Assembly: GCF_036323475.1 (NCBI RefSeq)
Contig: NZ_AP028934.1
Span: 186,001 to 250,000, forward strand
Reading direction: 5' to 3'
Source: Solobacterium moorei
GTDB taxonomy: Bacteria > Bacillota_I > Bacilli_A > Erysipelotrichales > Erysipelotrichaceae
DNA: 64,000 nucleotides
The stretch's first letter is position 1, and the number at the start of each line of letters is the position of its first letter. The notes under the pieces are model-generated. The model did no database searches. It saw only the letters and a program-made list of their open reading frames with translations, and was not told the DNA's origin. Made by a program: the position numbers and the translations under genes. Of this stretch, positions 23,732 to 38,452 are shown piece after piece.

Positions 23732-23735
23732 AAAT

Positions 23736-24062: not shown

Positions 24063-24130
24063 AAAAAAGACTTTATTATATTTATATATGTAGACTATAT
24101 CAATAAAGTTTGAAAGAGGTGGAGAATAGT

Positions 24131-26299
24131 ATGAGAAACAAAAGTGGGTTATTTAAACAAATTATATCCTTTCTGACAGCATTAGTAGTTATGTGTGGTA
24201 TGGTACTGCCAAGTACAATTACGGCAAATGCGGCAAACGCATTACCTATTGCACAGTACATTACTGTGAGCGGTACTGTCAGTGGTGTGGCAGGAAGTAA
24301 TAATGGTACTTACAATGGGGAATGGAAAGCATCCATTCCAATGGCTGATGTCATGTCTGCATTTGAAACGGAAATGCGCAGTGAAGCATCAGCTGGACAT
24401 TTCCCATGGGATATAGAAACCGTTAGTACAAGTGCATCTATTTATTATGATGTTACTTTCCCAGCAGGAGCAACAATAGGGACACCAACTATAGGCAGTA
24501 CTACGAGCATTATTCCAGCATCTACTATTACATCTTCTGTTGCAGGGAATACAGTTAAGATGAAGTTTAAGTTGGCAGATGTTAACTGGCAGACTATTGC
24601 GAACTATTATGATGCAGAAAAAGGAACGGCAAATCATACAGTAGATATTACGATTCCATATACAGTCTCTGCAAATGGATATGGTGATGCTAAAAATATT
24701 GATGATAGCAAGCAAATTACAAGTAGCGGTTATTTTGCATTCTATCCAAGTGGAAGTTGGGGTAGATGGGGAATTGGTAAACAAACATTCAATTCTGATA
24801 AATCTACGTTGCCTCTAACAGCTGATTTTGCGACAAGTACTGTATTTACGCAGCCGTCAGTCACTAACACATCTGCAACAGTAAATGTTGATGCAGATTT
24901 GATGTTAGATTCAGACACTGGAACACATGCAATTACAAAGCAAAAGACAGATGCGTTGAATTTTGTTGGTGTATTCCATGCTAAGACAATCAAAGATCAA
25001 ATGGCATCTATTGAAGCAAGTTATTCAGCACAAGCCAATCAAATTGGTTTGAGCAACTTGCAGACACAATTCAAAGCAACTATAAATTTACCTGCCGGTG
25101 TAAGTTTTACAGATATACCGTCTCCGGCAAATACTTCATTAGAAGGTAGCAATGGCTCATTTGTGGTGAGTGATGTTACAGGAGATGCCCATACGGCAAC
25201 TGTGACATTTGAACTTGTCAATGCGAACAATATAACTTTATTTTCACAGTTAAAAGATGCGGTTAATGCAGTTGATGATGATATGAAAGTACGTGTTCCT
25301 GCTGCTAAGTTTGATGCGGATGCTGTAGGTGGAACAGATTATGAAATTACAGGTGAGGTTTCCGGTGGCTTAACTGCAACAGCTACTAATAATGTTTCTC
25401 GGAATGTTATTAATTTTGACTTGAAATGGAATGGTAAACAGATACCGTCCGGTGCAAGTGTTAACAATCCAAGCATCATTGCGTTATCTGTAAATTATCC
25501 TGCTCCTATTGAGAAGAATTTTAATGAAACTTTGACTTTACCTGGAGATATTTTGGTTGGAACTGATACTCAGCATGATCATGTGTATGAAACTGCTAAA
25601 GATGCTAAAATTGCTTTTACAGGTTCGCTAGATGTTTCTTCTGTTAAAACACAGATGCGTCAAATTGAAGATACATACCACAGAGCGAATGTTGACCCAA
25701 CAACAATTGCACTTACAAATTATAATTCTGAATTTATAGCAACATTAACCCTCCCTGACGAGATGGATTTTGATACAAATCCAACAGTCTCTCTATTACA
25801 TGATAATGGCAAGTATAGAATTATCAGTCAGACGGTAAGTGGTAAGACAATCACAGTCAAGATGACTGTTGCAGCACCAGTTACAACGTTTGCAGATTTG
25901 AAAGATGCTGTACTTGGTATGGATGATACATTAGATGTTACTGTAAATGGGGCACACTTTAATAACAGTGCAAAACTGAATACAAATTATACTGTACGTG
26001 GTGCAATGGCAGGTCAACTTGCTGCTAAGGCTACAGATGTAAATAGTGGCAATGTTGTTAATTTTGTATTAAAGTGGAATGCTGAACAATCACCATCTGG
26101 GGCAGATTCTACAAATCCAACAAGTACTAATATTACCTTCACGTTGAAGTATCTTGACACAGCAACTCCAGAAGTTGCTAAATCAAACACACCTAAAACG
26201 GGTGATACCTCAAATCTCTCCCTTTATATTGGTGCAGTTATTGTAGCTTTCGCAGCATTTGGATTTATGATTACAAAGAGATTTAAGTTGAATAAGTAA
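24131..26299 (+). CDS. Repeat-containing cell-wall-anchored surface protein
   Basis: 722 residues, ATG at 24131 after AGAGGTGGAG. A signal peptide covers about residues 1-37 (KQIISFLTALVVMCGMVLPS...ANAA). A unique N-terminal domain is followed by two related segments of about 200 residues (about 260-456 and 476-673). Each contains D-x-T/D-HAITKQK-like or HVYETAKDA openings, V-x-x-QM-x-x-IE, L-x-D-x-K-DAV-x-x-x-D and a closing VI/VNF-x-LKWN-x-x-x-x-PSGA. The C-terminus carries NTPKTGDTSN, a membrane helix and the tail KRFKLNK, a TPKTG-type sortase signal. No known ligand-binding domain is recognised. It diverges from the Cna-B protein, with which it shares the sorting-signal style. Confidence 0.85.
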   Translation: MRNKSGLFKQIISFLTALVVMCGMVLPSTITANAANALPIAQYITVSGTVSGVAGSNNGTYNGEWKASIPMADVMSAFETEMRSEASAGHFPWDIETVSTSASIYYDVTFPAGATIGTPTIGSTTSIIPASTITSSVAGNTVKMKFKLADVNWQTIANYYDAEKGTANHTVDITIPYTVSANGYGDAKNIDDSKQITSSGYFAFYPSGSWGRWGIGKQTFNSDKSTLPLTADFATSTVFTQPSVTNTSATVNVDADLMLDSDTGTHAITKQKTDALNFVGVFHAKTIKDQMASIEASYSAQANQIGLSNLQTQFKATINLPAGVSFTDIPSPANTSLEGSNGSFVVSDVTGDAHTATVTFELVNANNITLFSQLKDAVNAVDDDMKVRVPAAKFDADAVGGTDYEITGEVSGGLTATATNNVSRNVINFDLKWNGKQIPSGASVNNPSIIALSVNYPAPIEKNFNETLTLPGDILVGTDTQHDHVYETAKDAKIAFTGSLDVSSVKTQMRQIEDTYHRANVDPTTIALTNYNSEFIATLTLPDEMDFDTNPTVSLLHDNGKYRIISQTVSGKTITVKMTVAAPVTTFADLKDAVLGMDDTLDVTVNGAHFNNSAKLNTNYTVRGAMAGQLAAKATDVNSGNVVNFVLKWNAEQSPSGADSTNPTSTNITFTLKYLDTATPEVAKSNTPKTGDTSNLSLYIGAVIVAFAAFGFMITKRFKLNK

Positions 26300-26308
26300 T
26301 CATATAAA

Positions 26309-26878
26309 GCTTAAGTAAAATAGTCGGTATGGTTTCGTGAAACCCGCTCTAAAATAAGCAATGAGTTTTGAATAGTGAAATAGGATGACTATAGAGTGCT
26401 AGTATTGGCATTCTGATGTAGTCATCCTTTTGTGTACAAGTGATTGATGGTATTACATTGATTAGCTGTCCGTAAGTTAATGTGATAGATTGTCGTCTAT
26501 ATGGACTTGGCTCAGAGAAGGACTTCCCACATTCTTTACAGACATAGCGTCTTCTTGTCCAATCAATGATGGATGGTATACCTGCAACGTCAAGGTGGTT
26601 ATAGCTGTACGAAGAATAATCCTTTATTTTTGTATAACCTCCACAACAGGGACAGATAGGGTGAGTATCATTCAGTTTTATTAAGATGTGTAATTTGTCA
26701 GATGATTTATTTGTATCAATCGAAAAAATCATATCATCACTAACATTAAGTGTGGATATGATAAAATCATTTATAGCCATATGGCGCCTCCTATGTTTCA
26801 TTTCAATCACTTGCAAGACTGAATTTTAGCATAGGAGTTTTTATTATGAATAGTATACCCCGTGAGATTTTATAGTGC
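26309..26878 (-). mobile_element. Internally deleted derivative of ISL3 copy B
   Basis: The left side (GCTTAAGTAAAATAGTCGG from 26309) equals the right end of copy B, and the complement of the right side (GCACTATAAAATCTCACGGG then G from 26878) equals its left end. Between them remain the transposase 5' third, a short piece around ATAGACGACAATCT and the 3' hairpin (26382-26429). At least two internal deletions have removed the catalytic core. About 570 bp long, it behaves like a miniature element that only a related transposase could move. The expected 8-bp duplication is not visible. Confidence 0.8.
26349..26780 (-). pseudogene. Truncated ISL3 transposase fragment
   Basis: Starts MAINDFIISTLNVSDDMIF, nearly identical to copy B for about 94 residues (through both zinc-ribbon halves, CPCCGG and CKECGKSFSEPSP). 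It then joins YRRQS, a short piece of the C-terminal SNALAE region, and runs out of homology. It has the DNA-binding N-terminus without a catalytic domain. If translated it might bind ISL3 ends as a competitor, but that is speculation. Confidence 0.8.
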
Positions 26879-26980
26879 AAAAAAGAAGTAAAGTTTCCTA
26901 GCATGCGGCAGATAAATTAAGGAATACGAGTTGGATTTGCGATTAACATAATGATAGAACGATAGAAAGGAGGGGGAGTT

Positions 26981-27319
26981 ATGCATAAAATCTATCTATT
27001 CTGTAGTGCGGGGATGTCTACTTCTATGATGGCAAGTAAAATGCAGAAGGTTGCGGATCAACATACTTTAGATATTGAAGTAAAAGCATTCTCTGATAAT
27101 TTATTAGATAAAATCATTACGGAACAAAATCCAGATGCCATTCTTTTAGGACCACAGGTTAAATATTTATATGACAAGGTAGTCGATCGTTATGGACATC
27201 TAGGAAAACCAATTTTCGTTATCGATACAGAAGAGTACGGTAACATGGACGGAGAGAGAGTTCTCAAACGTGCAATTTTAGAAATTAAAAAGAAGAAAGC
27301 AGAAAGCGAAGGTAAATAA
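26981..27319 (+). CDS. PTS lactose/cellobiose-family EIIB component
   Basis: A 112-residue cytoplasmic phosphocarrier. The phosphorylated Cys lies in the N-terminal loop FCSAGMSTSMM (Cys8), typical of the lactose/chitobiose EIIB fold; ILLGPQVKYLYD near residue 50 is also characteristic. It passes phosphate from EIIA to the sugar moved by EIIC. AAAGGAGGGGG precedes the ATG, predicting strong translation. Six bases separate it from EIIC. It opens a cluster with a GrdB-like protein, an M20 peptidase and a DUF871 glycosidase. The EIIA partner lies at 36249. Confidence 0.95.
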   Translation: MHKIYLFCSAGMSTSMMASKMQKVADQHTLDIEVKAFSDNLLDKIITEQNPDAILLGPQVKYLYDKVVDRYGHLGKPIFVIDTEEYGNMDGERVLKRAILEIKKKKAESEGK

Positions 27320-27324
27320 TTATT

Positions 27325-28674
27325 ATGATTAAGGCTTTAGAAAAGTTCCTTATCCCAATCGCTGATACCTTATCAAAGAATAAGGTATTAGTGGCTATCC
27401 GCGATGGCTTTATGTATGCAGTACCAGTAGTTATCGTTGGATCCATTTTCCTATTAATCTCCAACTTCCCAATTGAGGGTTGGTCAGAGATGATTGCTAC
27501 ATTTGCTGGTGAAGGATGGGAAAAATATTTTGATGCAGTAACTGCAGTTACATTTGATTGCTATGCATTACTATCTGTTATGGGCATTGCATATGCATAT
27601 GCACGAGAAAAGGGTGTTGATAAGATTGAATCTGCGGTTGTTGCACTTGTTACATTCTTGATGATTACACCAATGAAACATGCTGCATTCTTGAATGCAG
27701 ATGGCAAAATGTTCTCTGGTTTTTCGTTTGGTCATTTAGGTACAAAGGGTATCTTCTTGGCAATGATTGTAGCAATTATTTCTACAGAAATTTTTGCATT
27801 TGCAATTAAGAAAAAACTTGTTATTAAGTTACCTGATGGTGTCCCACCAGCAGTTATGGATTCATTTGCTGCGTTAATTCCTGCAGGATTATCAATGCTT
27901 GTATTCTTCTTTATCAACATGATCTTCGTTAATACTCCATTTGGAAATGTACATTCATTTATTTATCAAGTACTACAGGCTCCATTAGTTGGTTTAGGTA
28001 AGTCTCAAGCATTTGAAGTTATCTATCAGTTCTTAAGTACATTGTTCTGGTTCTTTGGTATCAATGGACCTGCTGTTACAAATACAATCTTCTCTCCAAT
28101 TCATAAGGCATTAACATTAGAGAACTATGAATTGGCTAAGGCTGGTTTACCAATGACAAATGTATTTACATCAGCATTCTCAGACTTCTTCTGCAACTTC
28201 GGTGGTGGTGGATCTACATTAGGTCTTGTATTAATGATGACATTTATTGCAAAGTCCAAGCGTTTAAAGACATTAGGAAGAATGGCACTTCCTGCTGGTA
28301 TCTTCGGTATCAATGAACCAATTATCTTTGGCTTCCCAATGGTATTGAATGTTATCATGGTAATTCCATTTATCCTTGCACCTGTAATGAATACAATTAT
28401 TGGACAGCTTGCAACAGCAGTAGGATTCATTCCAGTTACATCTGGTGTTCAGTTATCATGGACAACACCAATCTTTATTTCAGGTTATCTGACGACTGGT
28501 TCAATTAATGCTGTAATCTTACAGTTGTTTATGCTACTTGCAGATATGGCTCTCTACTATCCATTCTTCAAGATGCAAGATAGTAAGTATCTAGAGGAAG
28601 AAGAGAAGTTAGCGAAGGAAGAGAAGAAGGATGAAATTGATGAATTGTCCTTCGATGATTTGAAGTTAGACTAA
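27325..28674 (+). CDS. PTS lactose/cellobiose-family EIIC permease
   Basis: A 449-residue membrane permease with about ten helices, from MIKALEKFLIPIADTLSKNK and AIRDGFMYAVPVVIVGSIFLL to a charged C-terminal tail. Family landmarks are FFWFFGINGPAVTN near 235, NFGGGGSTLGL near 290 and FGINEPIIFGFPMVLNVIMVIPFI near 330, the substrate-binding region of CelB/ChbC-type EIIC. It imports and phosphorylates a beta-linked disaccharide or aminosugar. The actual substrate cannot be read from sequence; the neighbouring genes favour an amino-sugar conjugate. Confidence 0.95.
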   Translation: MIKALEKFLIPIADTLSKNKVLVAIRDGFMYAVPVVIVGSIFLLISNFPIEGWSEMIATFAGEGWEKYFDAVTAVTFDCYALLSVMGIAYAYAREKGVDKIESAVVALVTFLMITPMKHAAFLNADGKMFSGFSFGHLGTKGIFLAMIVAIISTEIFAFAIKKKLVIKLPDGVPPAVMDSFAALIPAGLSMLVFFFINMIFVNTPFGNVHSFIYQVLQAPLVGLGKSQAFEVIYQFLSTLFWFFGINGPAVTNTIFSPIHKALTLENYELAKAGLPMTNVFTSAFSDFFCNFGGGGSTLGLVLMMTFIAKSKRLKTLGRMALPAGIFGINEPIIFGFPMVLNVIMVIPFILAPVMNTIIGQLATAVGFIPVTSGVQLSWTTPIFISGYLTTGSINAVILQLFMLLADMALYYPFFKMQDSKYLEEEEKLAKEEKKDEIDELSFDDLKLD

Positions 28675-28675
28675 T

Positions 28676-29200
28676 ATGAAAGTAATATTGATTTTTGATT
28701 CCGGCTTAGCTGGAGCAGGTGGTAAGAGCAACCCTGATTGCACACTAAGTGCAACGCGCGAGATTGCTGGGACTGCAATGCTTTTAGAACCATATTTGAA
28801 AGAGATAGGCGGTCAGATTAGTGCAACACTTTACTGTGGAATGGATTACTACAAGCAGAATAAAGATGAAGTGGTTATGAAGATGACTGCGATGGTGAAG
28901 AAATTGGAACCAGATTTTGTCTTGTGTGGACCATGCTTTAACTTCCCTGAGTACAGTGAAATGGCAGCTCGTTGTGCAAAATTAATTGCAGAAAAAACAA
29001 CAGCAAAAGTCGCAAGTATGATGGCAATTGAAAATCAAGAAGTGATTGCACAATATAAGAATGATATTACGATTCTAAAGATGCCTAAGAAAGGCGGAAC
29101 AGGGTTAAGTGAGTCATTTGAAAATATGGCAAAGTTCATTGATGCATCCGTAAATCATCCGGAAAATCTTGAAGCTTTAAAAGAAACAATTTGTTATTAG
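28676..29200 (+). CDS. GrdB-like protein (glycine/sarcosine reductase B family, short)
   Basis: 174 residues, starting one base after the EIIC stop. The middle resembles the N-terminal part of reductase protein B of the glycine/betaine/sarcosine/D-proline systems: LYCGMDYYKQNKDEVVMKM followed by LEPDFVLCGPCFNFPEYSEMAARCAKLI. The large rest of GrdB, including the selenocysteine, is absent; there is no in-frame TGA to reinterpret. Complete Stickland reductase genes are not nearby. It is therefore unlikely to be a classical reductase and more likely a small enzyme acting in the PTS pathway. Function unknown. Confidence 0.65.
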   Translation: MKVILIFDSGLAGAGGKSNPDCTLSATREIAGTAMLLEPYLKEIGGQISATLYCGMDYYKQNKDEVVMKMTAMVKKLEPDFVLCGPCFNFPEYSEMAARCAKLIAEKTTAKVASMMAIENQEVIAQYKNDITILKMPKKGGTGLSESFENMAKFIDASVNHPENLEALKETICY

Positions 29201-29209
29201 AATAAGTCA

Positions 29210-29244
29210 AGCCCGGACAAAAGCTAACTGTTCGGGCTGATTTT
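29210..29244 (+). terminator. Intrinsic terminator after the PTS IIB-IIC-GrdB-like unit
   Basis: AGCCCGGACA (29210-29219) pairs with TGTTCGGGCT (29229-29238) and is followed by GATTTT. It separates the first transcription unit from the peptidase-DUF871 pair, or allows partial read-through into it. Confidence 0.75.
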
Positions 29245-29305
29245 AAAAATTAGAGAAAAATATAAACATACATGTTTATTGAATTAAAAAGAAAAGAGAT
29301 TAATT

Positions 29306-30439
29306 GTGAATAAGGAAGAGATATTTGCGCAGGTTGAAAGACGGAAACAAGATATGATTGATGACATTTGTACAATGGTACAAATTGATTCAAGACGTGG
29401 TGAGCCACAAGAGAAAAAGCCTTTCGGAATTGGGCCTGCAAATGCTTTGGAAAAAGCACTTGAAATTTGTAGACGAGAGGGACTGCCAACGAAAAATGTA
29501 GATGGTTATATGGGCTATGGCAGTTTCGGTAATAGTGAGGAATATATTGGTATTATTGGGCATGTAGATGTTGTTGAAGTTGGTGATGGTTGGATTGATC
29601 CGCCTTTTTCCGCTGCAATCCATGATGGAAGAATTTGGGGACGTGGAGCGTTAGATGATAAGGGCCCACTCTTTGCGGCAATGTATGGCATGCTTGCATT
29701 AAAAGATTTAGGGGTGCAGCCAAAGACAGCGATACATATCATCTTTGGAACAAATGAAGAAACTGGCATGGAAGATATGCATTACTTCTTGCAACATGAG
29801 AAAAAACCACTTGTAGGTTTTACACCGGATAATAAATTTCCTGCTATTTATGGTGAACGTGGTAGAGCGGTCATTGAAGTCTGGGGTGATGAACAGAAAG
29901 TAATTGAATTTGCGAATGAGTATTTCATGAATGCGAATGTCAATGGTGATAGATTGGGTATTGCTGTAAAGGATGAGCATTTTGGTGAGATGAAGATTCG
30001 CAATAAATTGTTATTGCATGCTAAGGATAAGATGGGTATTCGCTTCTCACTTAGCTATCCAACTTGTGATATGGATAAGATCATGCAGCAAATTCAAATA
30101 AAAGCAGTAGATTTAGAAGTGAGATTGGTATCCAATTCCCCCGTAGTGCTACACCATAAAAATTCGTGGCTAGTAAAGACAATGCAGAAGGCGTATGAAG
30201 AGGCAACAGATACAAGCGCACAACCAACTACAACAACAGGCGGAACATATGCTCACGTTTGTGATTCCATTATTCCGTATGGACCAAGTTTCCCAGGACA
30301 AAATGGAATTGCCCATCAGCCAAATGAATGGGTCAATATTGATGATTTGGTTGCGTGTGCAAAAATATATGCATGGACACTATATAAATTGTGTACAGAG
30401 CAAATACCTGAAAATCCATTAGAGGAGGAAAAATTATGA
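29306..30439 (+). CDS. M20 family metallo-dipeptidase (PepV/Sapep-like)
   Basis: 377 residues with a GTG start at 29306 and only a weak AAGAAAAGAG site upstream. Dinuclear metal ligands are recognisable: GHVDVVEVGDGW near residue 91, GRGALDDKGP near 113, the catalytic NEETGMED near 151, TPDNKFP near 173 and the C-terminal GIAHQPNEW near 346. PepV/Sapep enzymes hydrolyse dipeptides in the cytoplasm. This one is about 90 residues shorter than usual PepV, mainly in the lid domain. Its stop overlaps the start of the DUF871 gene (ATGA), implying coupled translation. In this context it may trim a peptide part of an imported conjugate. Confidence 0.85.
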   Translation: MNKEEIFAQVERRKQDMIDDICTMVQIDSRRGEPQEKKPFGIGPANALEKALEICRREGLPTKNVDGYMGYGSFGNSEEYIGIIGHVDVVEVGDGWIDPPFSAAIHDGRIWGRGALDDKGPLFAAMYGMLALKDLGVQPKTAIHIIFGTNEETGMEDMHYFLQHEKKPLVGFTPDNKFPAIYGERGRAVIEVWGDEQKVIEFANEYFMNANVNGDRLGIAVKDEHFGEMKIRNKLLLHAKDKMGIRFSLSYPTCDMDKIMQQIQIKAVDLEVRLVSNSPVVLHHKNSWLVKTMQKAYEEATDTSAQPTTTTGGTYAHVCDSIIPYGPSFPGQNGIAHQPNEWVNIDDLVACAKIYAWTLYKLCTEQIPENPLEEEKL

Positions 30440-31524
30440 GAAAACTAGGAGTTTCTATTTACCCAGAAAAAAGTAGTATTGAAGAGATCTTTGCATATCT
30501 AAAAGAAATGAGTGAAATCGGTGCAAAGAGAATTTTCTCTTGCTTATTATCTGTAAGAAAACCGGCAAATGAAATCAAAGAAGAGTTTACAAAGATTCAT
30601 GATTACGCAAAGAGTCTTGGTTATGAAATCATCTTAGATGTAAATCCGTCTGTATTTAAAGAATTGGGTGTCAGTTATACAGATTTGAAATTTTTCCATG
30701 ATATTCATGCGGATGGTATCCGCATGGATGGTGGTTTTAGTGGTTTTGAAGAAGCACTTATGACATATAATCCATATGGGTTGAAAGTAGAAATTAACAT
30801 GAGTTCAAGTACACATACAATTGATACAATCATGGACTATAAACCAAATCGTTATCAGTTGTGCGCATGTCATAATTTTTATCCACATGACTATACGGGA
30901 TTGGATTTGGATTTCTTCTTAAAGTGTTCTGAAAAGTTTAGTCACTATGGACTAAGAACAGCTGCGTTTATCGGCTCTTTGGAAAAGGCTGCGTATGGAC
31001 CATGGCCTACAACGGATGGTTTATGTACATTAGAAATGCATCGTCATATGCCGATTGATATTCAACTAAAACATCTAGTCGTATTAGATTTAATTGATGA
31101 TATTATTATCGCAAACTGTTATCCAAGTGCTGCAGAAAAGGAAGCGTTAAAGCATGTTTGCTTAGATGTTGTAAATTTCAAAGTTGTACTAGAAGCGAAT
31201 ATTCCGGAAACAGAAAAGAAGATTGTATTAGAAGAACTTCATTTAAATCGAGGAGATTTAAATCCATGCATGATTCGTTCAAGCCAAAGTAGAGTGAAAT
31301 ACAGGGGTCATCATTTTGATGTGTTCCATGCTCCGGATATGATTCATCGTGGCGATGTATTGATTGATAGTAGTGAATATGGAACATATGCTGGTGAACT
31401 ACAGATTGCATTACAGGATATGAAGAATAGTGGAAGAACCAATGTTGTTGGACATATTCGTGAAGAGGAACTCTTTATCCTTGATAGTCTAAAGCCTTGG
31501 CAGAAGTTTAAATTTACATTGTAG
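30436..31524 (+). CDS. DUF871 / MupG-like 6-phospho-glycosidase
   Basis: 362 residues of the DUF871 family: N-terminal TIM barrel opening with RKLGVSIYPEKSSIEEI, then IFSCLLSV, DVNPSVFKELG, DGIRMDGGFSGFEEA and ACHNFYPHDYTGLD, followed by a cyclophilin-like C-terminal domain from about residue 240. The characterised member, Staphylococcus aureus MupG, is a 6-phospho-N-acetylmuramidase (GH170) that splits MurNAc-6-phosphate-GlcNAc after PTS import. Here it lies with a PTS and a dipeptidase, so a related intracellular phospho-glycosidase role is likely. It overlaps the peptidase stop by four bases. Substrate specificity is not established. Confidence 0.85.
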   Translation: MRKLGVSIYPEKSSIEEIFAYLKEMSEIGAKRIFSCLLSVRKPANEIKEEFTKIHDYAKSLGYEIILDVNPSVFKELGVSYTDLKFFHDIHADGIRMDGGFSGFEEALMTYNPYGLKVEINMSSSTHTIDTIMDYKPNRYQLCACHNFYPHDYTGLDLDFFLKCSEKFSHYGLRTAAFIGSLEKAAYGPWPTTDGLCTLEMHRHMPIDIQLKHLVVLDLIDDIIIANCYPSAAEKEALKHVCLDVVNFKVVLEANIPETEKKIVLEELHLNRGDLNPCMIRSSQSRVKYRGHHFDVFHAPDMIHRGDVLIDSSEYGTYAGELQIALQDMKNSGRTNVVGHIREEELFILDSLKPWQKFKFTL

Positions 31525-31583
31525 TATCCTAAATTATATTTCTGAATGACAGGGCTATTGATGTCTGTAAATATAATGATAAA

Positions 31584-31634
31584 AGAAAAGAAGATGAAAC
31601 AGGACGAGCTATCCTAAAGACATCTTCTTTTTTG
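31584..31634. terminator. Bidirectional terminator between DUF871 gene and PRD regulator
   Basis: AAAAGAAGATG (31586-31596) pairs with CATCTTCTTTT (31621-31631), with A and T runs outside the stem. The genes on both sides converge on it. Confidence 0.75.
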
Positions 31635-31637
31635 ACT

Positions 31638-33545
31638 CTATGAAATGAGATAACTAATGAATTCCTCATATGTGTTGCTCGAAATTAAGTGAGATAGCTT
31701 TTCATAATCTTCTGTAAGAGAGGCGACCCAATCGAAGAATGGTTTGAGAGTTGTGGTATCGGGTTTATCAATTGCTAGTAGGAAAATAAGCTGTACCTCA
31801 TACTTGCCCCATAGTACTGGTTTGTCTAATAGCATGATTGAGATTGCGGATTTAAGACAAGAGGAATCAATTGGGTGTGGTGTTGCAAAGTTAAAATTAA
31901 ACGATGTTGGTGATAGTGCTTCACGCCGCATCACGGACGGATAGAATGCATCAGTCACAATAGAAGCCTTTTGGAGTTCTTTTGACATGAACTGTAGAAT
32001 CTCTTGTGGTGTATTAAAGAGTTGATGATTATAGAAGAACTCTTTTGAAATTAATCCTTTTAGATTTGTATAGAACTCTTTTTGTGTACGCGTTCTTTCA
32101 ATTTCATGAATCATTTCGAAAAGTTTAGCTTCATCATCTTTACTGCAGAGCAATGAAACTTCGACCGTTGGAATCTCGAGCTTATGACGTAATGGAATTG
32201 AACATATTAATAAGTCTGGTTCATCCGCAAGGATGAGTTCCTCTTGAAAGTATGCATATACTTTGACAATCTCAATATGTTCATAGAATATCGTTTCAAT
32301 CTTTTTACGTTGTGTATAGAAGGCTGTTTCACCTAACGGATAAATCCATATCGCTCTGAGTTTTTTGGAATGATAGATACGCTCGTATGCAAGTCCTAGA
32401 TGTAAAGTAATAAAGCCAATTTCATCTTCAGTGATATTGATGTGTAGCCTATTTGCAAGGAAGGTTGCAGTACTTACCCCTACTTCAAAAATCAGTGGAA
32501 ACTTACGTTTAATTTCTTGTAGGTATAAGTTGGCTGTATGGGTTTGACTAATACTGCGCTCAATTAACGATTGGAGATGGAGTGTTAAACCGAGCTTAAA
32601 GTCATCATCTTTAGAGAAGTCGATACCGTGATGACCGTATATAAAAGCAATCAATTCATTGACGATGTCACTGCAGAGTAACCCATCGGGCATATAGTTG
32701 GAGATTTCTGCATCACTGATTTGTGCTGGATTGTTTCCCATCAGTAATAATGCAAGGATATTGACTTCACTTTCAATGACCTGCGCTTGATATAATATTG
32801 CAATTTGTTCGTAGAATTCTTTGGCAATTTTATATTCAATGGCATTGTGAATCTTGGAACTTGTGTATGTTGACTCAATGTATTTCCCACTTAGAATACG
32901 ATCAATAGAAATACTGATATGCAATAATATGGATGGCAATGCATTTGCGTTAATTACATACTTGTGTTCTTGCAGTAAGTTTTCTAACTCGCTTTTGCAT
33001 CTGAGTAAATCAAAGTTTTGATATAGATTTGCTAGCTCGTTGATATTTAAGAAATTCTGCTTGGTCTCGTCCATGAGAAGATGTTTGTATAATTTGCGTA
33101 GTTCATTTTCAGAGCCTAATAGGACGAGATGGTTTGATGATTTCTTGAGTTTGAGATTTTGATAATTTGCTAATTGTTTACGGATCTCTTTAAGATGTGC
33201 ATCAAGAGTATATTCGGAGATGCATAACTGTTCTAATAAATCAGGGATATAGATAGAATCACGTGATAAAAGAAGGGACTTTAGAATATACAAATTTCTT
33301 TCGAATGAGCTCTGCAATAAGTTCTGTCGTTTCGATTGAAATTGTTTATAGTTTTCAGGGATGAGAGCATATCCACTTCGAAGATTTGAGGTAATTAGCT
33401 TCTCAGAATAAACTTTATTGATTGTATCAATATCAGAACGAATCGTACGATTAGATACAGATAATAATTTGGCGAGTTCGTTAGCAGTGAACCATTTGTT
33501 TTCTTCACGTAGAATGTGAAGAATCTTTTCTTGTCGTTTATTCAT
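31638..33545 (-). CDS. PRD-containing PTS-controlled transcription activator (LicR/MtlR type)
   Basis: 635 residues. The start MNKRQEKILHIL at 33545 follows AAAGGTGAT; the frame extends further but without a site. Domains in order: HTH at 1-60 (ELAKLLSVSNRTIRSDI), second HTH near 100-125, PRD1 at about 170-280 and PRD2 at about 285-395 (with EDEIGFITLHLGLAYER), an EIIB-like segment near 400-475, and a mannitol-type EIIA domain to the end with FATPHPIDSS. Such regulators sense PTS phosphorylation and activate their sugar operons. It is encoded between the two halves of the PTS locus and very probably controls both. Confidence 0.9.
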   Translation of the reverse strand: MNKRQEKILHILREENKWFTANELAKLLSVSNRTIRSDIDTINKVYSEKLITSNLRSGYALIPENYKQFQSKRQNLLQSSFERNLYILKSLLLSRDSIYIPDLLEQLCISEYTLDAHLKEIRKQLANYQNLKLKKSSNHLVLLGSENELRKLYKHLLMDETKQNFLNINELANLYQNFDLLRCKSELENLLQEHKYVINANALPSILLHISISIDRILSGKYIESTYTSSKIHNAIEYKIAKEFYEQIAILYQAQVIESEVNILALLLMGNNPAQISDAEISNYMPDGLLCSDIVNELIAFIYGHHGIDFSKDDDFKLGLTLHLQSLIERSISQTHTANLYLQEIKRKFPLIFEVGVSTATFLANRLHINITEDEIGFITLHLGLAYERIYHSKKLRAIWIYPLGETAFYTQRKKIETIFYEHIEIVKVYAYFQEELILADEPDLLICSIPLRHKLEIPTVEVSLLCSKDDEAKLFEMIHEIERTRTQKEFYTNLKGLISKEFFYNHQLFNTPQEILQFMSKELQKASIVTDAFYPSVMRREALSPTSFNFNFATPHPIDSSCLKSAISIMLLDKPVLWGKYEVQLIFLLAIDKPDTTTLKPFFDWVASLTEDYEKLSHLISSNTYEEFISYLIS

Positions 33546-33655
33546 AATAATCACCTTTCGTAGCATGGAATAATATTTTCCTAATAGTAGGAAAACAAAA
33601 CATAGGAATCTATATGATAATTTATTAAAATAGTAATATAAAAAAGAGGGGTAGA

Positions 33656-34537
33656 ATGAAAGAGAAACTCATCGATTTTAAGCAGAAACAATCGATCCGT
33701 TTAGTGTTCAGTATTCTCTGTGTCATCTTTTCGGCTTTGTTGCAAACTTATGCCTTAAAAGTTTTTTTAAGACCTGCCGGATTGTTGTCGAGTGGATTTA
33801 CGGGTCTTGCAATATTAATAAATGTTATAGGCAGTCAACATCAAATACAAATACCAGTTGCGCTAATGATTGTATTACTGAATGTACCAGTAGCGATACT
33901 GTGTGGTAAGTCTATTTCAACAAAGTTTACTATACTATCATCATTGCAATTTGCATGTGTGTCAATATTCTTAACGGTATTTCAATTTGATATTTTGTTT
34001 GATGATATCATGTTAAACATCGTTATTGGTGGTGTGGTGTATGGCTTAGGAATTGTGGCTGCGTTAGTAGGCAATGCAAGTACGGGTGGTACAGATTTTA
34101 TTGCATTATATGTTTCAAATAAGACGGGTAAGAGTATTTGGACATATGTCTTTGTATATAACTGTATCTTGTTATGTATCTTTGGTTTTGTGTCGGGTTG
34201 GGAGCGTGCAGGATATTCCATTATCATGCAGTTTGTATCGACTAAAGTTATTGAAAGCTTGTATCGAAGATATGATCGAAGCACGATACAGATAACAAGT
34301 AAGATGCCTGAAGAAATCGTAGCTGTCTATACAAAGAAATATCGTCATGGTATTTCGGTTTGGGAAAGCTATGGAGGATATTCTCATCAAAAGAATTACA
34401 TGTTGAATACTGTTGTTTCGACATTAGAAGTGAAGGAGATTGCACATTTGATATTAAATGTTGATCCTCGTGCAATCATAAATGTATATAGAACTGATGA
34501 TTTCTATGGCGGTTTTTATCGGAAACCGATAGACTAG
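33656..34537 (+). CDS. YitT family membrane protein (DUF161/DUF2179)
   Basis: 293 residues. Five to six hydrophobic helices cover residues 15-205 (VFSILCVIFSALLQTYALKVFLRPAGLLSSGFTGLAIL; GLGIVAALVGNASTGGTDFIALYVS). A soluble C-terminal DUF2179 domain follows (STIQITSKMPEEIVAVYTKKYRHGISVWESYGGYS...VLRTVVSTLEVKEI-like). The family is very common in Firmicutes and its transport role is unproven. It is divergent from the PRD regulator and 16 bases upstream of the aspartylglucosaminidase-like gene, so it probably belongs to the same operon and could be an extra transporter for it. Confidence 0.88.
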   Translation: MKEKLIDFKQKQSIRLVFSILCVIFSALLQTYALKVFLRPAGLLSSGFTGLAILINVIGSQHQIQIPVALMIVLLNVPVAILCGKSISTKFTILSSLQFACVSIFLTVFQFDILFDDIMLNIVIGGVVYGLGIVAALVGNASTGGTDFIALYVSNKTGKSIWTYVFVYNCILLCIFGFVSGWERAGYSIIMQFVSTKVIESLYRRYDRSTIQITSKMPEEIVAVYTKKYRHGISVWESYGGYSHQKNYMLNTVVSTLEVKEIAHLILNVDPRAIINVYRTDDFYGGFYRKPID

Positions 34538-34553
34538 ACGGGAGGATATTTTG

Positions 34554-35507
34554 ATGTGGGCGATAATTGCGACTTGGCGAATGGCACTTGAAGGGGTACA
34601 GGAGGCAGGTAACTTATTAAAAGAAGGTAAGAGCAGCGGGGAAGCGGTTGAACATGCAATACGCTGTGTAGAGGATTTCCCATACTATAAATCTGTTGGA
34701 TATGGTGGTTTACCAAATGAAGAGATGATTGTTGAACTCGATGCAGGATATATGGATGGAAATACAATGGCTATGGGGGCTGTAGCTGGTATTAAAGATT
34801 TCGCAAATCCTATTTCCATTGCCAAAGAGTTATCAAAAGATACTGTCAATTGTGTACTTGTAGCAGAGGGTGCTGAAAAGTATGCTAGCAAAAAAGGTTT
34901 TGAAAGAAAGACAATGTTAACAGATCGGGCCAAGCAACATTATCGTAAACGTGTAAAAGAAGTTCGCGAGCAGGAGCTAAAACCATATGATGGCCATGAT
35001 ACTGTTGGTGAAGTTGCACTAGATAGTGCAGGAAAGATTGTTGCAGGAACTTCTACGAGTGGTTTATTTATGAAGAAGGCTGGACGTATTGGTGATTCTC
35101 CTATCGTTGGGGGTGGCTTCTACGCTGACTCTGAGGTTGGTGGAGCTACCGCGACTGGTCTTGGCGAAGATTTGATGAAGGGATGTATCTCTTATGAAAT
35201 CGTACGTAAGATGAAAGAAGGAATGGACCCACAAGAAGCTTGCCAAAGAACAGTAGATGAGTTAGATGCGAAACTAAAAAAGAGCCGCGGCTTTGCAGGT
35301 GATCTTAGTGTTGTGGCAATTGATAAAGATGGTAATTACGGTTGTGCTACGAATATTCAAAACTTCTCATTTGTTATATATCGCGAAAACGAAGAAGCCA
35401 AAGTTTATCTAGCAAATTGTATCGATGGTAAGACAGTGATTACAGCTGCTAGTCAAGAGTGGATGGACCAATACATGCAAGAAAGGATGGCACCGATTCA
35501 AGAATGA
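34554..35507 (+). CDS. N4-(beta-N-acetylglucosaminyl)-L-asparaginase-like Ntn hydrolase
   Basis: 317 residues; the ATG at 34554 follows GGGAGGATAT. It belongs to the self-processing asparaginase-2/aspartylglucosaminidase family. The cleavage site lies in PYDGHDTVGEVALD; Thr150 becomes the N-terminal nucleophile of the beta chain. GTSTSGLFMKKAGRIGDSPIVGGG and ATATGLGEDLMKG follow in the expected order, and VGYGGLPNEE stands in the alpha chain. The family cleaves the GlcNAc-Asn bond of glycoasparagines, releasing aspartate and a 1-amino-sugar. No signal peptide is present, so it acts in the cytoplasm, presumably on an imported, possibly phosphorylated substrate. It overlaps cutC by four bases. 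Confidence 0.88.
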   Translation: MWAIIATWRMALEGVQEAGNLLKEGKSSGEAVEHAIRCVEDFPYYKSVGYGGLPNEEMIVELDAGYMDGNTMAMGAVAGIKDFANPISIAKELSKDTVNCVLVAEGAEKYASKKGFERKTMLTDRAKQHYRKRVKEVREQELKPYDGHDTVGEVALDSAGKIVAGTSTSGLFMKKAGRIGDSPIVGGGFYADSEVGGATATGLGEDLMKGCISYEIVRKMKEGMDPQEACQRTVDELDAKLKKSRGFAGDLSVVAIDKDGNYGCATNIQNFSFVIYRENEEAKVYLANCIDGKTVITAASQEWMDQYMQERMAPIQE

Positions 35508-36247
35508 AAATAGATATCTTTGAAGTGTGTGCTGGAAGTGTGCAGGATTGTATCAATGCGCAACTTGGCGGTGCAGATCGTGTTGAACTAAATAGTGCTT
35601 TATATCTTGGTGGACTAACTCCTAGTCTTGCGATGTTAAAGCTTGTAAAAGAAAGGACGTCACTCAAGGTTATCTGTATGGATAGACCTCGGGCAGCTGG
35701 CTTTTGTTATGATGATGTCGAAATAGAGACAATGCTTGAAGATGCCAAAATCTTATTAGAAAATGGGGCAGATGGAATTTCCTTTGGTTTTCTGAATTCT
35801 GATGCGACAATCAATGTAACCGAAACAAAAAAGATGGTTGAATTAATCCATCGCTATCAAAAGGAAGCCGTGTTCCATCGTGCGTTTGATTGTGTGGCTG
35901 ACCCTATACAGGCAATCAAACTATTAATTGCTTGTGGTGTTGATCGTATCTTGACAAGTGGTTTACAGCCAACCGCACTACAGGGCATCTCAGCAATTGC
36001 AAAATTACAAAGTGAATTTGGCAATCAGATTGAGCTACTTGCGGGTAGCGGTATTCATGCGGATAATATTAGAACATTAAAAGAACAAACAGGAATTCAT
36101 CAATTCCATGGTAGTTGTAAGGAATGGTGTAAAGATCCCACCACAACAGTTGGAAATGTGAGTTATGCCTATCACGAAAGTGATGACTATGATTGCGTTA
36201 GTTTGGAAAAGGTAAAATGTATCGTACAGGAATTGAGAGGTAAGTAA
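35504..36247 (+). CDS. cutC: CutC family protein
   Basis: 247 residues; ATG at 35504 overlaps the upstream TGA (ATGA), so translation is coupled. It is a TIM-barrel CutC: IFEVCAGSVQDCINAQLGGADRVELN at the N-terminus, LYLGGLTPSLAML, GADGISFGFL near 90, VFHRAFDCV near 125, RILTSGLQPTALQG near 150, LLAGSGIHADNI and HGSCKEW. CutC was named for copper homeostasis, but the biochemical activity is unsettled. Its tight coupling here to an aspartylglucosaminidase-like gene and a PTS EIIA gene points to sugar metabolism rather than metal handling. Confidence 0.9.
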   Translation: MKIDIFEVCAGSVQDCINAQLGGADRVELNSALYLGGLTPSLAMLKLVKERTSLKVICMDRPRAAGFCYDDVEIETMLEDAKILLENGADGISFGFLNSDATINVTETKKMVELIHRYQKEAVFHRAFDCVADPIQAIKLLIACGVDRILTSGLQPTALQGISAIAKLQSEFGNQIELLAGSGIHADNIRTLKEQTGIHQFHGSCKEWCKDPTTTVGNVSYAYHESDDYDCVSLEKVKCIVQELRGK

Positions 36248-36248
36248 A

Positions 36249-36554
36249 ATGGAAGGCTTAGAGTTAATCTGCTTTAAAATTATTGCGTCGGTAGGAGAAG
36301 CGAGAAATTCCCTTTTGAATGCATATCGACATGCAAAAAGAAAAAATGTGGAAGAAGCGAAAAAGTGTATGCAGGAGGCAGAGGAGTTCTTCAATAAAGC
36401 ACACCAAGCTCATGCGGAACTGATTACACAGGAAGCGAGTGGCGAAAATATCAGTGTGAATCTATTATTGGTTCATGCGGAAGATCAGCTAATGAGTATT
36501 GAAACACTTAAGATCATCGTAGAAGAGGAGATCTTATTTGCGGAAGGATTGTAG
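36249..36554 (+). CDS. PTS lactose/cellobiose-family EIIA component
   Basis: A 101-residue all-helical EIIA of the lactose/chitobiose family: ELICFKIIASVGEARNSLLNAYRHAKRKN at the N-terminus and LLLVHAEDQLMS near residue 76, whose His is the phosphorylation site. It starts one base after the cutC stop. It is the obvious partner of the EIIB and EIIC encoded at 26981-28674, which have no EIIA of their own. Placing EIIA behind the amidase and CutC ties both gene groups to one transport system. Confidence 0.95.
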   Translation: MEGLELICFKIIASVGEARNSLLNAYRHAKRKNVEEAKKCMQEAEEFFNKAHQAHAELITQEASGENISVNLLLVHAEDQLMSIETLKIIVEEEILFAEGL

Positions 36555-36556
36555 GC

Positions 36557-37177
36557 ATGAGTAAAAATAAGCAATTAAGAAAGAAAATAACTGAAAATAC
36601 ACAGAATAATCAAAATGCTTTTCTTGCTAGAAGAGGATTCGCGTTTATAATTGATTTTATTATTACAAATCGTTTGTCACTCTTTGTGACAGGAATTGTA
36701 TATGGATTGATGAATAACGGAAATATTCAGATTCTCAACGGGTTTGAAGGTATACAGCCAACACAGATTATCGTGTTATTGTTAAGTGTGCTTGTCACAC
36801 ATGGATTCTACTTTGTCTTTGTGCCTGCCAAGATTACGGGTGGTTCAACGGTGATGCAGAAGGTAATGCAGATTAAAGTTGTGCGTGAGAATGGTGAACC
36901 AGCTACGTTGAAGGACTTTGCGTTACGTTACTTCGTAGGATCAGTATTATGCGAAGGCTTGTTCTATGATGCTTTTGGTGTCATTCTGAGCGGTATCTTA
37001 TTTGGCATCTTTATGGCTGAGGATATTAGTCGTATCATTTATATCGTAAGTGCGATCAGTAGCATTCTTTCGCTAATTATGGCATTGATGGATAAAGGAA
37101 AATATCGATTCTTCCATGACAAGATTTCTAAGACAATCATGAAGGATGAATATGTTGCAGGTGGCAAGGTACTATAA
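36557..37177 (+). CDS. RDD family membrane protein
   Basis: 206 residues. LARRGFAFIIDFIITNRLSLFVTGIVYGLM near residue 24 holds the R-x-x-A-x-x-I-D signature of RDD proteins, and a further helix covers 70-90. GGSTVMQKVMQIKVVRENGEPATLKDFALRYFVGSVL near 100 is also typical. About four membrane helices in all. RDD proteins have been linked to small-molecule or ion transport, without a general function. It begins two bases after the EIIA stop and is the last gene of the operon. Confidence 0.85.
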   Translation: MSKNKQLRKKITENTQNNQNAFLARRGFAFIIDFIITNRLSLFVTGIVYGLMNNGNIQILNGFEGIQPTQIIVLLLSVLVTHGFYFVFVPAKITGGSTVMQKVMQIKVVRENGEPATLKDFALRYFVGSVLCEGLFYDAFGVILSGILFGIFMAEDISRIIYIVSAISSILSLIMALMDKGKYRFFHDKISKTIMKDEYVAGGKVL

Positions 37178-37334: not shown

Positions 37335-37381
37335 AAGTCGCGTAAATATTGAAATATATATTTGAAAGAGGGGACTATCAC

Positions 37382-38452
37382 ATGAATTTCTTTGATATCT
37401 TTGTAAAGACATTATCAAATGAAAAGATCAGTTCGGCTATCGTTTCTAGCATAGCGATTATCCTATTAGGTTATGTTATGCGTCGTAAGAAGGTATTCGA
37501 TGATCACACGGCGAAAGTATTAACACAGGTTGTACTTTCTGTATCAGTTGCAGCGCTAGCATTTAAGTCATTTATGGCACCAATCAAACCAGAAACATTT
37601 ACACAGGGTTTAAATGTATTAATCTGGGGTATCGTAATTTACATCTTACTCATCTTCTTAACAATTCCGCTCTATGCGAAGTTTGAAGGTGACGAACAGG
37701 ATGCTTTACGCGTACTAAGTATCTTTGGTTCTACAACCTTCTTTGGAATTCCTATCGTAAGTGCAATTTATGGTGCAGAAGGTGCGTTATATGCGTCTAT
37801 CTTCAACATTGGTTACAGAATCTTCTTATATTCTTATGGATATATCAAGATGAGTGGATTAAAGATGACATCTAAGAATATCAAGTCTATGTTCTTAAAT
37901 CCAATCGTTATTGCTACATTCTTAGGTCTATTCTTATGGTTAGCACAAGCATATTTACCACAGGTTACTGTAGCTGTTAAGGATGCGGCATCAGGTGAAA
38001 TGGTTAATAAGTCTGTTTCATTCATGCGTTTAGACCTTACATCTCCACAGATTACTCAGATTTTAACTTACTTAGCTGGTTTAGCTTCTCCACTTGCTTG
38101 GTTAGCAATTGGTTCTACACTTGGTTCAGTAAGCTTCAAGGATGCAATGACAGACAAGAAGGCAGTTTACTATACATTCATTAAGTTATTGATTATCCCT
38201 GCATTCAACATCGTTGTATTAGCAATTTTAACAGTAACTCATATCTTACCAGTTAACCTTGTTTCTTTAGGTACAACAGTTATTATGATGGCTACACCTC
38301 CAGCAACAGTTGCGGCTTCTTATGCAATTCGTTTTGACAAGGGTGCTCTCGTTGCGTCTAACACTTCATTGATTGCAACATTAGCAGCTGTTATTATGGC
38401 TCCTATTTGGATTGTTATCGTTGAATTAATTGGACATTTAGGAATCTTTTAA
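37382..38452 (+). CDS. AEC (auxin efflux carrier) family transporter
   Basis: 356 residues; ATG at 37382 follows GAAAGAGGGG. About ten membrane helices in the two-bundle AEC pattern, with SAIVSSIAIILLGYVMRRKKVFDD at the N-terminus and TTVIMMATPPATVAASYAIRFDKGALVASNTSLIATL near the end, where the conserved Pro-rich helix lies. Bacterial members often move malate, lactate or other organic acids. It is followed by D-lactate dehydrogenase, so an organic-acid role is plausible. The hairpin between them may reduce rather than block read-through. Confidence 0.88.
   Translation: MNFFDIFVKTLSNEKISSAIVSSIAIILLGYVMRRKKVFDDHTAKVLTQVVLSVSVAALAFKSFMAPIKPETFTQGLNVLIWGIVIYILLIFLTIPLYAKFEGDEQDALRVLSIFGSTTFFGIPIVSAIYGAEGALYASIFNIGYRIFLYSYGYIKMSGLKMTSKNIKSMFLNPIVIATFLGLFLWLAQAYLPQVTVAVKDAASGEMVNKSVSFMRLDLTSPQITQILTYLAGLASPLAWLAIGSTLGSVSFKDAMTDKKAVYYTFIKLLIIPAFNIVVLAILTVTHILPVNLVSLGTTVIMMATPPATVAASYAIRFDKGALVASNTSLIATLAAVIMAPIWIVIVELIGHLGIF

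What the first reader, a model, noticed from the sequence alone, without database searches (positions are those of the whole stretch)
26981..37177. Split PTS locus that may catabolise a glycopeptide or amino-sugar-amino-acid conjugate
One PTS is split: IIB-IIC at 26981-28674 and the only matching IIA at 36249-36554. Between them lie a GrdB-like protein, an M20 dipeptidase, a DUF871 (MupG/GH170-type) phospho-glycosidase, a PRD regulator, YitT, a cytoplasmic aspartylglucosaminidase-like amidase and CutC. The spacings (1 base after IIC, ATGA between peptidase and DUF871, ATGA between amidase and cutC, 1 base before IIA) show tight coupling. Known: MupG splits MurNAc-6P-GlcNAc, and aspartylglucosaminidase splits GlcNAc-Asn. 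Inferred: a single pathway that imports and phosphorylates a sugar-amino-acid or muropeptide compound and cleaves it by steps. The combination with GrdB-like and CutC proteins is, as far as I know, undescribed as a pathway.
Basis: partly seen in the sequence, partly recalled or inferred. Interest (0 to 1): 0.82.

Follow-up and report, generated by a model that had tools for sequence, protein, structure and literature searches.

The report
Gut bacterial sugar-asparagine scavenging operon
This bacterium carries a widely conserved set of genes that most likely imports the sugar-asparagine stubs left over from digested glycoproteins and breaks them into usable sugar and amino acid, and it hints that the puzzling 'copper protein' CutC really belongs to amino-sugar metabolism.

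Summary
All named genes are there, and the split PTS is one system: in 80 loci that encode the same GrdB-like protein the genes form one module, usually PRD regulator-(RDD)-IIA-IIB-IIC-GrdB-like-glycosylasparaginase-M20-CutC-YitT, with DUF871 in 44. The window shows a local rearrangement of it, beside a transposase remnant. A palindrome, TTCCTA-N4/5-TAGGAA, lies upstream of both window halves (one copy degenerate) and upstream of module genes in 53 of 82 loci, also before separately placed DUF871 genes, so this looks like one regulon. The amidase is closest to true glycosylasparaginases. Best reading: PTS uptake of GlcNAc-Asn or chitobiosyl-Asn (from glycopeptides), trimming by peptidases, cleavage to Asp and GlcNAc-6P, then NagA/NagB. 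The pathway class is already described: E. faecalis ega (PTS, dipeptidase, glycosylasparaginase, putative oxidoreductase) and L. casei alf-2. New here: the PRD/palindrome-controlled module, the exchange of DUF871 for ChbG-like plus GH4 enzymes in three loci, and a tie of CutC to glycosylasparaginase and amino-sugar genes in several phyla. The muropeptide version is less likely. The roles of the GrdB-like protein, CutC and YitT remain unproven.

The parts
26894..26911 (.). degenerate copy of the shared operator-like palindrome (TTTCCTAGCATGCGGCAG), about 70 bp upstream of IIB
   Evidence: better-preserved equivalents upstream of IIB in L014 and L017
26981..27319 (+). PTS IIB, lactose/cellobiose/chitobiose family
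   Evidence: PF02302; 45% identical to IIB of the E. raffinosus ega-type locus
27325..28674 (+). PTS IIC, lactose/cellobiose/chitobiose family
   Evidence: lacE subfamily over cut-off; solved relative 3qnq E 2.4e-96; 44% identical to E. raffinosus IIC
28676..29200 (+). GrdB-like protein without the selenocysteine half; accessory function unknown
   Evidence: NF041545; 80 of 80 loci have IIC nearby; model pLDDT 97
29204..29243 (+). hairpin ending in a U-run between GrdB-like and M20 genes: terminator- or attenuator-like
29306..30439 (+). M20 (Sapep/PepV-like) peptidase with short lid region
30436..31524 (+). DUF871 / GH170 (MupG-ChbE type) probable 6-phospho-glycosidase
   Evidence: MupG_N and MupG_C; 1x7f E 2e-107
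31638..33566 (-). PRD-containing transcription regulator with EIIA domain
33577..33594 (.). perfect palindrome TTTCCTA-ATAG-TAGGAAA in the PRD/YitT intergenic region, probable operator
33656..34537 (+). YitT membrane protein (YitT + DUF2179), role unknown
   Evidence: in 62 of 80 loci
34554..35507 (+). probable cytoplasmic glycosylasparaginase (AsnA2/EgaG type; no signal peptide by eye)
   Evidence: PF01112; 1p4k E 9.8e-54 against 9.4e-36 for the best L-asparaginase/isoaspartyl-peptidase chain; HDTVG with Thr at 151 of the listed ORF
35504..36247 (+). CutC TIM-barrel protein, possible amino-sugar enzyme
   Evidence: PF03932; contexts; fold
36249..36554 (+). PTS IIA, lactose/cellobiose/chitobiose family
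   Evidence: PF02255
36557..37177 (+). RDD family membrane protein, frequent member of the module
   Evidence: PF06271; in 54 of 80 loci by a loose profile

Best explanation
One inducible catabolic regulon for the sugar-asparagine stubs of N-glycoproteins. The PTS (IIA-IIB-IIC) imports GlcNAc-Asn, or GlcNAc-GlcNAc-Asn, alone or on a short peptide, and puts a phosphate on the outer GlcNAc. The M20 peptidase (in some other genomes also M42 aminopeptidases) trims neighbouring amino acids so that the asparagine has free amino and carboxyl groups. DUF871 (in a few genomes ChbG-like plus GH4 enzymes) cuts the phosphorylated GlcNAc from a chitobiosyl form. The glycosylasparaginase cuts sugar from asparagine, giving aspartate and a 1-amino sugar (phosphate), which becomes GlcNAc-6-phosphate plus ammonia, by itself or with help from CutC. 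NagA and NagB, encoded elsewhere in this genome, finish the job. A PRD regulator, itself a PTS sensor, acts at the shared palindrome. Shown here: the gene families, conserved clustering, palindrome and presence of nagA and nagB. Inferred: the substrate, its phosphorylation, the order of steps, binding of the regulator, and the roles of CutC, YitT and the GrdB-like protein.
For: Conserved module in 80 loci from genome contigs: IIC 80, AsnA2 75, M20 75, IIB 75, PRD 72, IIA 70, CutC 66, YitT 62, RDD 54, DUF871 44 of 80; of 49 loci with at least 8 kb on each side AsnA2, M20 and IIC 49, CutC 44, YitT 43, DUF871 27. Palindrome: 90 sites in 82 loci, 87 next to a module gene, four control dyads 3, 0, 1, 0. 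AsnA2 is glycosylasparaginase-like. IIC belongs with the chitobiose/cellobiose group. GH4 and ChbG-like genes in three loci that lack DUF871 (L063, L065, L072). NagA-type and glucose/GlcNAc-type PTS genes near the module in some loci. nagA and nagB intact in this genome. E. raffinosus ega-type locus with homologous IIB, IIC, IIA, M20 and AsnA2. Literature: PMC6960285 (results and discussion), PMC11160706 and PMC12791066 (passages).
Against: No substrate was tested. The set of 80 loci was gathered through the GrdB-like protein, so counts are conditional on it. In one locus (L077) IIABC, GrdB-like and DUF871 stand without AsnA2, M20 or CutC (10 kb upstream and about 7 kb downstream held); L027 also lacks AsnA2. 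9 of 13 GrdB-less AsnA2 loci examined have no CutC beside AsnA2. The palindrome core is not commoner than its reversed control over 24 whole genomes (93 against 96; own genome 2 against 4); only its placement is special, and 29 of 82 loci lack it, among them the GH4/ChbG loci L063 and L065 and the Enterococcus locus. Own genome has no GH18 match, so the stubs would have to come from other organisms or from enzymes not sought. Phosphorylation of GlcNAc-Asn, and action of AsnA2 on a phosphorylated substrate, are assumptions.
Confidence: 0.7

Rival explanations
1. Peptidoglycan salvage: the PTS takes up MurNAc-GlcNAc or a muropeptide, DUF871 works as MupG, and the amidase and M20 enzyme remove peptide parts.
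For: Pfam names DUF871 MupG. In one GrdB-less relative (L098) the module lies beside genes that read as MurQ, AnmK, MurR and a DUF871-IIC pair (the first three named by eye). murQ is in this genome.
Against: The amidase is of the glycosylasparaginase kind, not a MurNAc-L-Ala amidase. murQ is about 0.2 Mb away from the module. DUF871 was not found in 36 of 80 loci, 22 of the 49 with full flanks, and GH4 6-phospho-beta-glucosidase plus ChbG-like genes occur in three of those without it. A DUF871/GH170 relative, ChbE, is needed for diacetylchitobiose in L. paracasei (PMC12791066, passages).
Confidence: 0.1
2. Plain chitobiose uptake with separate peptide scavenging: the PTS and DUF871 serve diacetylchitobiose, and the amidase and peptidases serve peptide nitrogen under the same regulator.
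For: IIC and IIB belong with the chitobiose/cellobiose group. L077 has IIABC, GrdB-like and DUF871 without the asparaginase. ChbG-like plus GH4 genes occur in L063, L065 and L072.
Against: AsnA2 and M20 are in 49 of 49 loci with full flanks whereas DUF871 is in 27; the E. faecalis ega locus couples a similar set to GlcNAc-Asn use (PMC11160706 passage).
Confidence: 0.12
3. The amidase is a beta-aspartyl (isoaspartyl) peptidase and the locus handles damaged or branched peptides rather than sugar-asparagine.
For: Same superfamily; NCBIfam gives beta-aspartyl-peptidase well under its cut-off (130 against 567 bits); peptidases nearby.
Against: Best solved relatives are glycosylasparaginases by 18 orders of magnitude in E-value; near-constant pairing with a sugar PTS in the GrdB-selected loci.
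Confidence: 0.06

Closest known systems
Enterococcal glycosylasparaginase locus (ega), E. faecalis (passage in PMC11160706; original study by title only)
   Same: Glycosylasparaginase, lactose/cellobiose EIIB and EIIC, dipeptidase, and a gene for a putative oxidoreductase (pseudogene in OG1RF) that the passage cites together with a glycine-reductase selenoprotein B paper, so I take it for the GrdB-like gene.
   Different: GntR regulator there, PRD regulator and TTCCTA palindrome here; the passage read names no CutC, YitT, RDD or DUF871; gene order differs.
L. casei alf-2 cluster for fucosyl-GlcNAc-Asn (PMC6960285; results and discussion read)
   Same: Cytoplasmic AsnA2 and PepV-type M20 peptidase; GlcNAc-Asn as central intermediate.
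   Different: MFS permease, fucosidase, aspartate decarboxylase and sugar kinase there; PTS here, so no kinase would be needed; pepV was dispensable for the tested substrate there.
L. paracasei chb operon for diacetylchitobiose (PMC12791066; abstract and passages read)
   Same: Cellobiose-type PTS plus a GH170 (DUF871-family) enzyme, ending in NagA/NagB.
   Different: The abstract lists no glycosylasparaginase or peptidase in the cluster; DUF3284 protein present.
S. aureus MupG / MurP (PMC6262408; seen as search listing and abstract start only)
   Same: DUF871 family enzyme with a PTS.
   Different: MurNAc-GlcNAc recycling; absence of an asparaginase there is recalled, not checked.

Membership tests
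E. faecalis ega-type GlcNAc-Asn locus | glycosylasparaginase with lactose/cellobiose IIB and IIC | tested here: met
   homologous to the E. raffinosus locus
E. faecalis ega-type GlcNAc-Asn locus | M20 dipeptidase in the locus | tested here: met
   (31% identity; central region shorter)
E. faecalis ega-type GlcNAc-Asn locus | GntR regulator | tested here: not met
   PRD-EIIA regulator instead; so not filed as ega itself
E. faecalis ega-type GlcNAc-Asn locus | growth on GlcNAc-Asn that depends on the locus | not testable with these tools
   needs growth tests
L. casei alf-2 | MFS permease, fucosidase and sugar kinase in the cluster | tested here: not met
   none among the module proteins and near neighbours scanned
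Glycosylasparaginase (EC 3.5.1.26) | autoproteolytic Thr and closest kinship to known glycosylasparaginases | tested here: met
   HDTVG motif and 1p4k alignment
Glycosylasparaginase (EC 3.5.1.26) | activity on GlcNAc-Asn | not testable with these tools
   needs enzyme assay
GrdB selenoprotein (glycine/betaine/sarcosine reductase) | full-length protein with the selenocysteine half | tested here: not met
   174 aa; matches profile positions 3-168 of 347 and NCBIfam 'no_Se'
GH170 / MupG | both MupG domains | tested here: met
GH170 / MupG | 6-phospho-N-acetylmuramidase activity | not testable with these tools
   GH170 also holds ChbE, genetically tied to chitobiose (PMC12791066)
CutC family | sequence and TIM-barrel fold of CutC | tested here: met
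   PF03932; model against human CutC 3iwp Z 36.2, rmsd 1.6, 242 aligned
CutC family | role in copper homeostasis | tested here: inconclusive
   many gene contexts point to amino sugars, some do not; copper binding not tested

The most novel reading that the evidence does not exclude
CutC, a family also found in humans and named for copper, is an amino-sugar enzyme: it handles the product of glycosylasparaginase (1-amino-GlcNAc or its 6-phosphate) or GlcNAc(-6-phosphate) itself, for instance by hydrolysing the glycosylamine or converting its anomer or epimer. The module would then hold an enzymatic route for the unstable glycosylamine, with the GrdB-like protein as a selenium-free binding or deaminating partner.
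Probability: 0.4. Interest if true: 0.85.

Novelty: new variant of a known kind. Interest (0 to 1): 0.6.

Why it matters
It suggests that PTS-driven salvage of glycoprotein sugar-asparagine stubs is not an enterococcal oddity but a conserved, separately regulated module in many Erysipelotrichaceae, Clostridia and Collinsella. It gives a candidate operator, a set of enzymes and clear substrates to test. It also offers a concrete, testable setting for three orphan families (CutC, YitT, selenium-free GrdB-like).

Tried and rejected
Sequence search of the GrdB-like profile against the PDB gave nothing convincing (best E 0.014). Foldseek gave no match at E of 0.001 or below. VIA-align gave only receiver-domain, Rossmann-like and other alpha/beta folds at Z about 9-11 (for example CheY 1tmy Z 10.8, rmsd 2.5, 114 aligned), a common arrangement that says nothing of function. 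No GrdB structure was among the 50 rows shown.

I considered DUF871 as a fixed member and dropped that: it is in 44 of 80 loci. tblastn found no DUF871 in the six relatives' loci, but five of these six are the same contigs as loci in the set of 80 (equal contig lengths), so they are not independent. IIA was not found in one of the six (G059).

I looked for regulon members elsewhere through the palindrome (matches listed in part): over 24 whole genomes the 12-base dyad has 93 sites against 96 for its reversed control (summed; own genome 2 against 4, G050 5 against 10, but G307 7 against 1). G296 and G297 have only two sites each, both inside the module. No outside member was established. The own-genome third site for the stricter pattern lies near a gene that reads as ParA-like (by eye) and was not taken as a member. 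The stricter pattern was designed from the window itself, so its two window hits are not a test; the genome-wide rarity and the other loci are.

CutC contexts: 18 plasmid records were opened out of 60 listed (67 with a match). 13 of 18 had AGA, ROK or BadF kinase-type genes, nagA/nagB, GH20 or murQ within 5-6 kb; 5 did not (Parabacteroides, Cetobacterium, E. gallinarum, E. faecalis, Entomospira). Two of the 13 rest on a BadF-type ATPase alone, and Palleronia on a ROK gene alone. Six arbitrary control stretches on six of the same plasmids had none of these, though one (Qingshengfaniella) holds MurA/MurB-type biosynthesis genes (Fisher p 0.003, records not independent). Records with an annotated CutC were chosen by me, not at random. 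AsnA2 hits on Sphingomonas and Thermomicrobium plasmids had no CutC beside them; Persicobacter carries no annotation. In L. sakei asnA2 (LSA1693) and cutC (LSA1440) bear distant locus numbers (tables in PMC3146418, passages).

The RDD counts come from a loose transmembrane profile and may include strays. The GH4 protein of L063 matched the NCBIfam alpha-galactosidase subfamily below its cut-off; PDB kinship (1s6y, E 2e-191) made it a 6-phospho-beta-glucosidase. In L065 the GH4 reading falls in two ORFs. Pfam was run on GH4 of L063 and YdjC of L065 only; the other copies are by blastp clustering.
Full report
What is there. Two additions: an RDD membrane-protein gene follows IIA, and a strong hairpin ending in a U-run separates the GrdB-like gene from the M20 gene, so those two are less tightly coupled than the rest. 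The genome is a single 2.6-Mb contig; the nearest named match to its GrdB-like protein is an Erysipelotrichaceae MAG (80% identity).

One module, not two. Seven of 60 genomes (own included) have the GrdB-like family, and the six others carry PRD, IIB, IIC, GrdB-like, AsnA2, M20, CutC and YitT in one cluster, with IIA found in five and DUF871 in none. A scan of genome contigs with the GrdB-like alignment returned 80 loci, equal to the cap, from Erysipelotrichaceae, Clostridia, Collinsella, an Enterococcus and a Streptococcus MAG. In the 80 loci: IIC 80, IIB 75, AsnA2 75, M20 75, PRD 72, IIA 70, CutC 66, YitT 62, RDD 54, DUF871 44. In the 49 loci with at least 8 kb on both sides: IIC, AsnA2 and M20 49, IIB 48, PRD 46, IIA 46, CutC 44, YitT 43, RDD 34, DUF871 27. 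The commonest order (12 loci) is PRD-RDD-IIA-IIB-IIC-GrdB-AsnA2-M20-CutC-YitT-DUF871. L014, the nearest relative, has the window's order. L017 has PRD', YitT-AsnA2-CutC-IIA-RDD-IIB-IIC-GrdB, then two M42-like genes and M20. The split PTS is thus a lineage-level rearrangement; an ISL3 transposase remnant stands just upstream of IIB, so an insertion-sequence cause is possible but not shown. The counts are conditional on the GrdB-like query.

One regulon. A perfect palindrome, TTTCCTA-ATAG-TAGGAAA, lies between the PRD and YitT genes, and a degenerate copy about 70 bp upstream of IIB. The pattern covering both has three sites in the whole genome, two of them here. In 82 loci (the window, L010 and the 80) the core dyad TTCCTA-N3..6-TAGGAA has 90 sites, 87 of them next to a module gene; four control dyads have 3, 0, 1 and 0. 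53 of 82 loci have at least one and 33 at least two; 29 have none, among them several short contigs, all eight Collinsella-type (Coriobacteriia) loci, L063, L065 and the Enterococcus locus. Eight sites lie upstream of DUF871 genes that stand ahead of the PRD gene, and one more between divergent DUF871 and PRD genes, which puts DUF871 in the regulon there. Over 24 whole genomes the dyad is not commoner than its reversed control (93 against 96), so placement, not number, is the evidence. That the PRD protein binds it is inferred.

The amidase and the substrate. AsnA2 is closest to glycosylasparaginases (1p4k E 9.8e-54) and farther from L-asparaginase/isoaspartyl-peptidase chains (2zak 9.4e-36), with the Thr of HDTVG in place. 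IIC matches the solved family member 3qnq (E 2.4e-96). Peptidases vary: M20 is almost constant and in the window short by about 94 residues of the central region; M42-like aminopeptidases join in 13 of the 80 loci (by clustering, one member checked by Pfam). Three loci without DUF871, Romboutsia L063, Terrisporobacter MAG L065 and Clostridium sartagoforme L072, carry GH4 and ChbG-like (YdjC) genes; in L063 and L065 these stand between PRD and IIA, in L072 at the two ends of the module. The L063 GH4 protein is a 6-phospho-beta-glucosidase by kinship (1s6y). Together with the finding that ChbE, a GH170 relative of DUF871, is needed for diacetylchitobiose in L. paracasei (PMC12791066, passages), this makes a chitobiose-type phosphorylated unit likely for part of the substrates. 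nagA and nagB are intact elsewhere in the genome, and murQ is there too; GH18 was not found.

What is known. In E. [quoted passage not shown] The original study, on N-acetylglucosamine-L-asparagine, is not held; I know its title only. In L. casei the alf-2 cluster does the job with an MFS permease and a kinase (PMC6960285, results and discussion); there glycosylasparaginase activity was shown, its product is said to break down by itself in acid, and the closest pepV relatives are linked to asnA2. An E. raffinosus plasmid has GntR-Sapep-AsnA2-IIB-IIC-IIA with no CutC or GrdB-like gene annotated; its proteins are 31-56% identical to the window's. E. canis (L033) has YitT, GntR, M20, AsnA2, IIC, GrdB-like and two M42-like genes, with no IIA, IIB or CutC found. 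The window system is therefore a variant of a known kind of pathway, with different regulation and extra members.

CutC. Among 245 genomes drawn from the phylum, 21 have Asparaginase_2 (one only a partial match) and all 21 have CutC, against 77 with CutC overall (Fisher p 3e-12 without correction for kinship); in 9 of the 21 the two genes lie within about 2 kb, in 12 they do not (read from the tables). Of 28 GrdB-less relatives with Asparaginase_2 I opened 13: CutC stands beside AsnA2 in four (two with only that pair, one as YitT-CutC-M20-AsnA2 without PTS genes, one as the module without GrdB-like), and nine have no CutC there. In Bacteroidota, three Hymenobacter plasmids have glycosylasparaginase overlapping CutC by four bases, with GH92 genes nearby. 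In all, 13 of 18 opened plasmid contexts of CutC hold amino-sugar or ROK/BadF genes, against 0 of 6 control stretches; the 18 were not chosen at random. The nearest non-CutC folds of the CutC model are mostly phosphate-binding barrels (MJ1099 4rc1 Z 21.8, rmsd 2.7, 216 aligned; then hexulose-phosphate synthase, DERA, PdxJ, TrpF-type enzymes at Z 17-20). A shared fold shows no function, but context and fold together make a phosphorylated amino sugar a good first substrate to try. No listing showed a paper making this link (one search listed 15 of 24; only PMC3146418 was opened, and there the two genes are far apart).

GrdB-like and YitT. The GrdB-like protein matches only the first half of GrdB (profile 3-168 of 347) and NCBIfam names it selenium-free. 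The model is confident (pLDDT 97) but its fold matches are generic. The family was not found in G047, whose locus is L098; it is not annotated in the E. raffinosus locus and, if the E. faecalis oxidoreductase pseudogene is its counterpart, it is broken in OG1RF, so it is probably an accessory part. YitT was not found in 18 of 80 loci, 6 of the 49 with full flanks. Their roles are open.

Noticed in passing
window 26349-26816 (-): Fragment of an ISL3-type transposase (zinc-ribbon part only, 155 aa) directly upstream of the IIB half; possible cause of the local rearrangement.
   Followed up: partly
window 29204-29243: Strong hairpin ending in a U-run between the GrdB-like and M20 genes (-19.3 kcal/mol, z -4.95), likely a terminator or attenuator.
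   Followed up: partly
window 19181-23788 (-) and 24110-26299 (+): Large surface protein with four Cna_B domains and an isopeptide (FctA) domain, next to a protein ending in an LPxTG-like tail (NTPKTG); no Pfam family for the second.
   Followed up: no
window 13447-15219 (+): DDE_Tnp_1 transposase.
   Followed up: no
window 37349-38452 (+): Mem_trans (AEC-type) carrier downstream of RDD; kept in L014 (86% identity) and weakly similar carriers near the module in L015 and L017.
   Followed up: partly
L098 1-12775: GrdB-less module beside genes that read as MurQ, AnmK and MurR (by eye) and a DUF871-IIC pair: sugar-asparagine and MurNAc salvage side by side.
   Followed up: partly
L077 10001-11706: Streptococcus MAG with PRD-RDD-IIA-IIB-IIC-GrdB-DUF871 and no asparaginase, M20 or CutC found in the locus; a natural test of what DUF871 alone does.
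   Followed up: partly
L113, L151, L152: Hymenobacter plasmids with glycosylasparaginase-CutC pairs overlapping by four bases, with GH92 genes nearby.
   Followed up: partly
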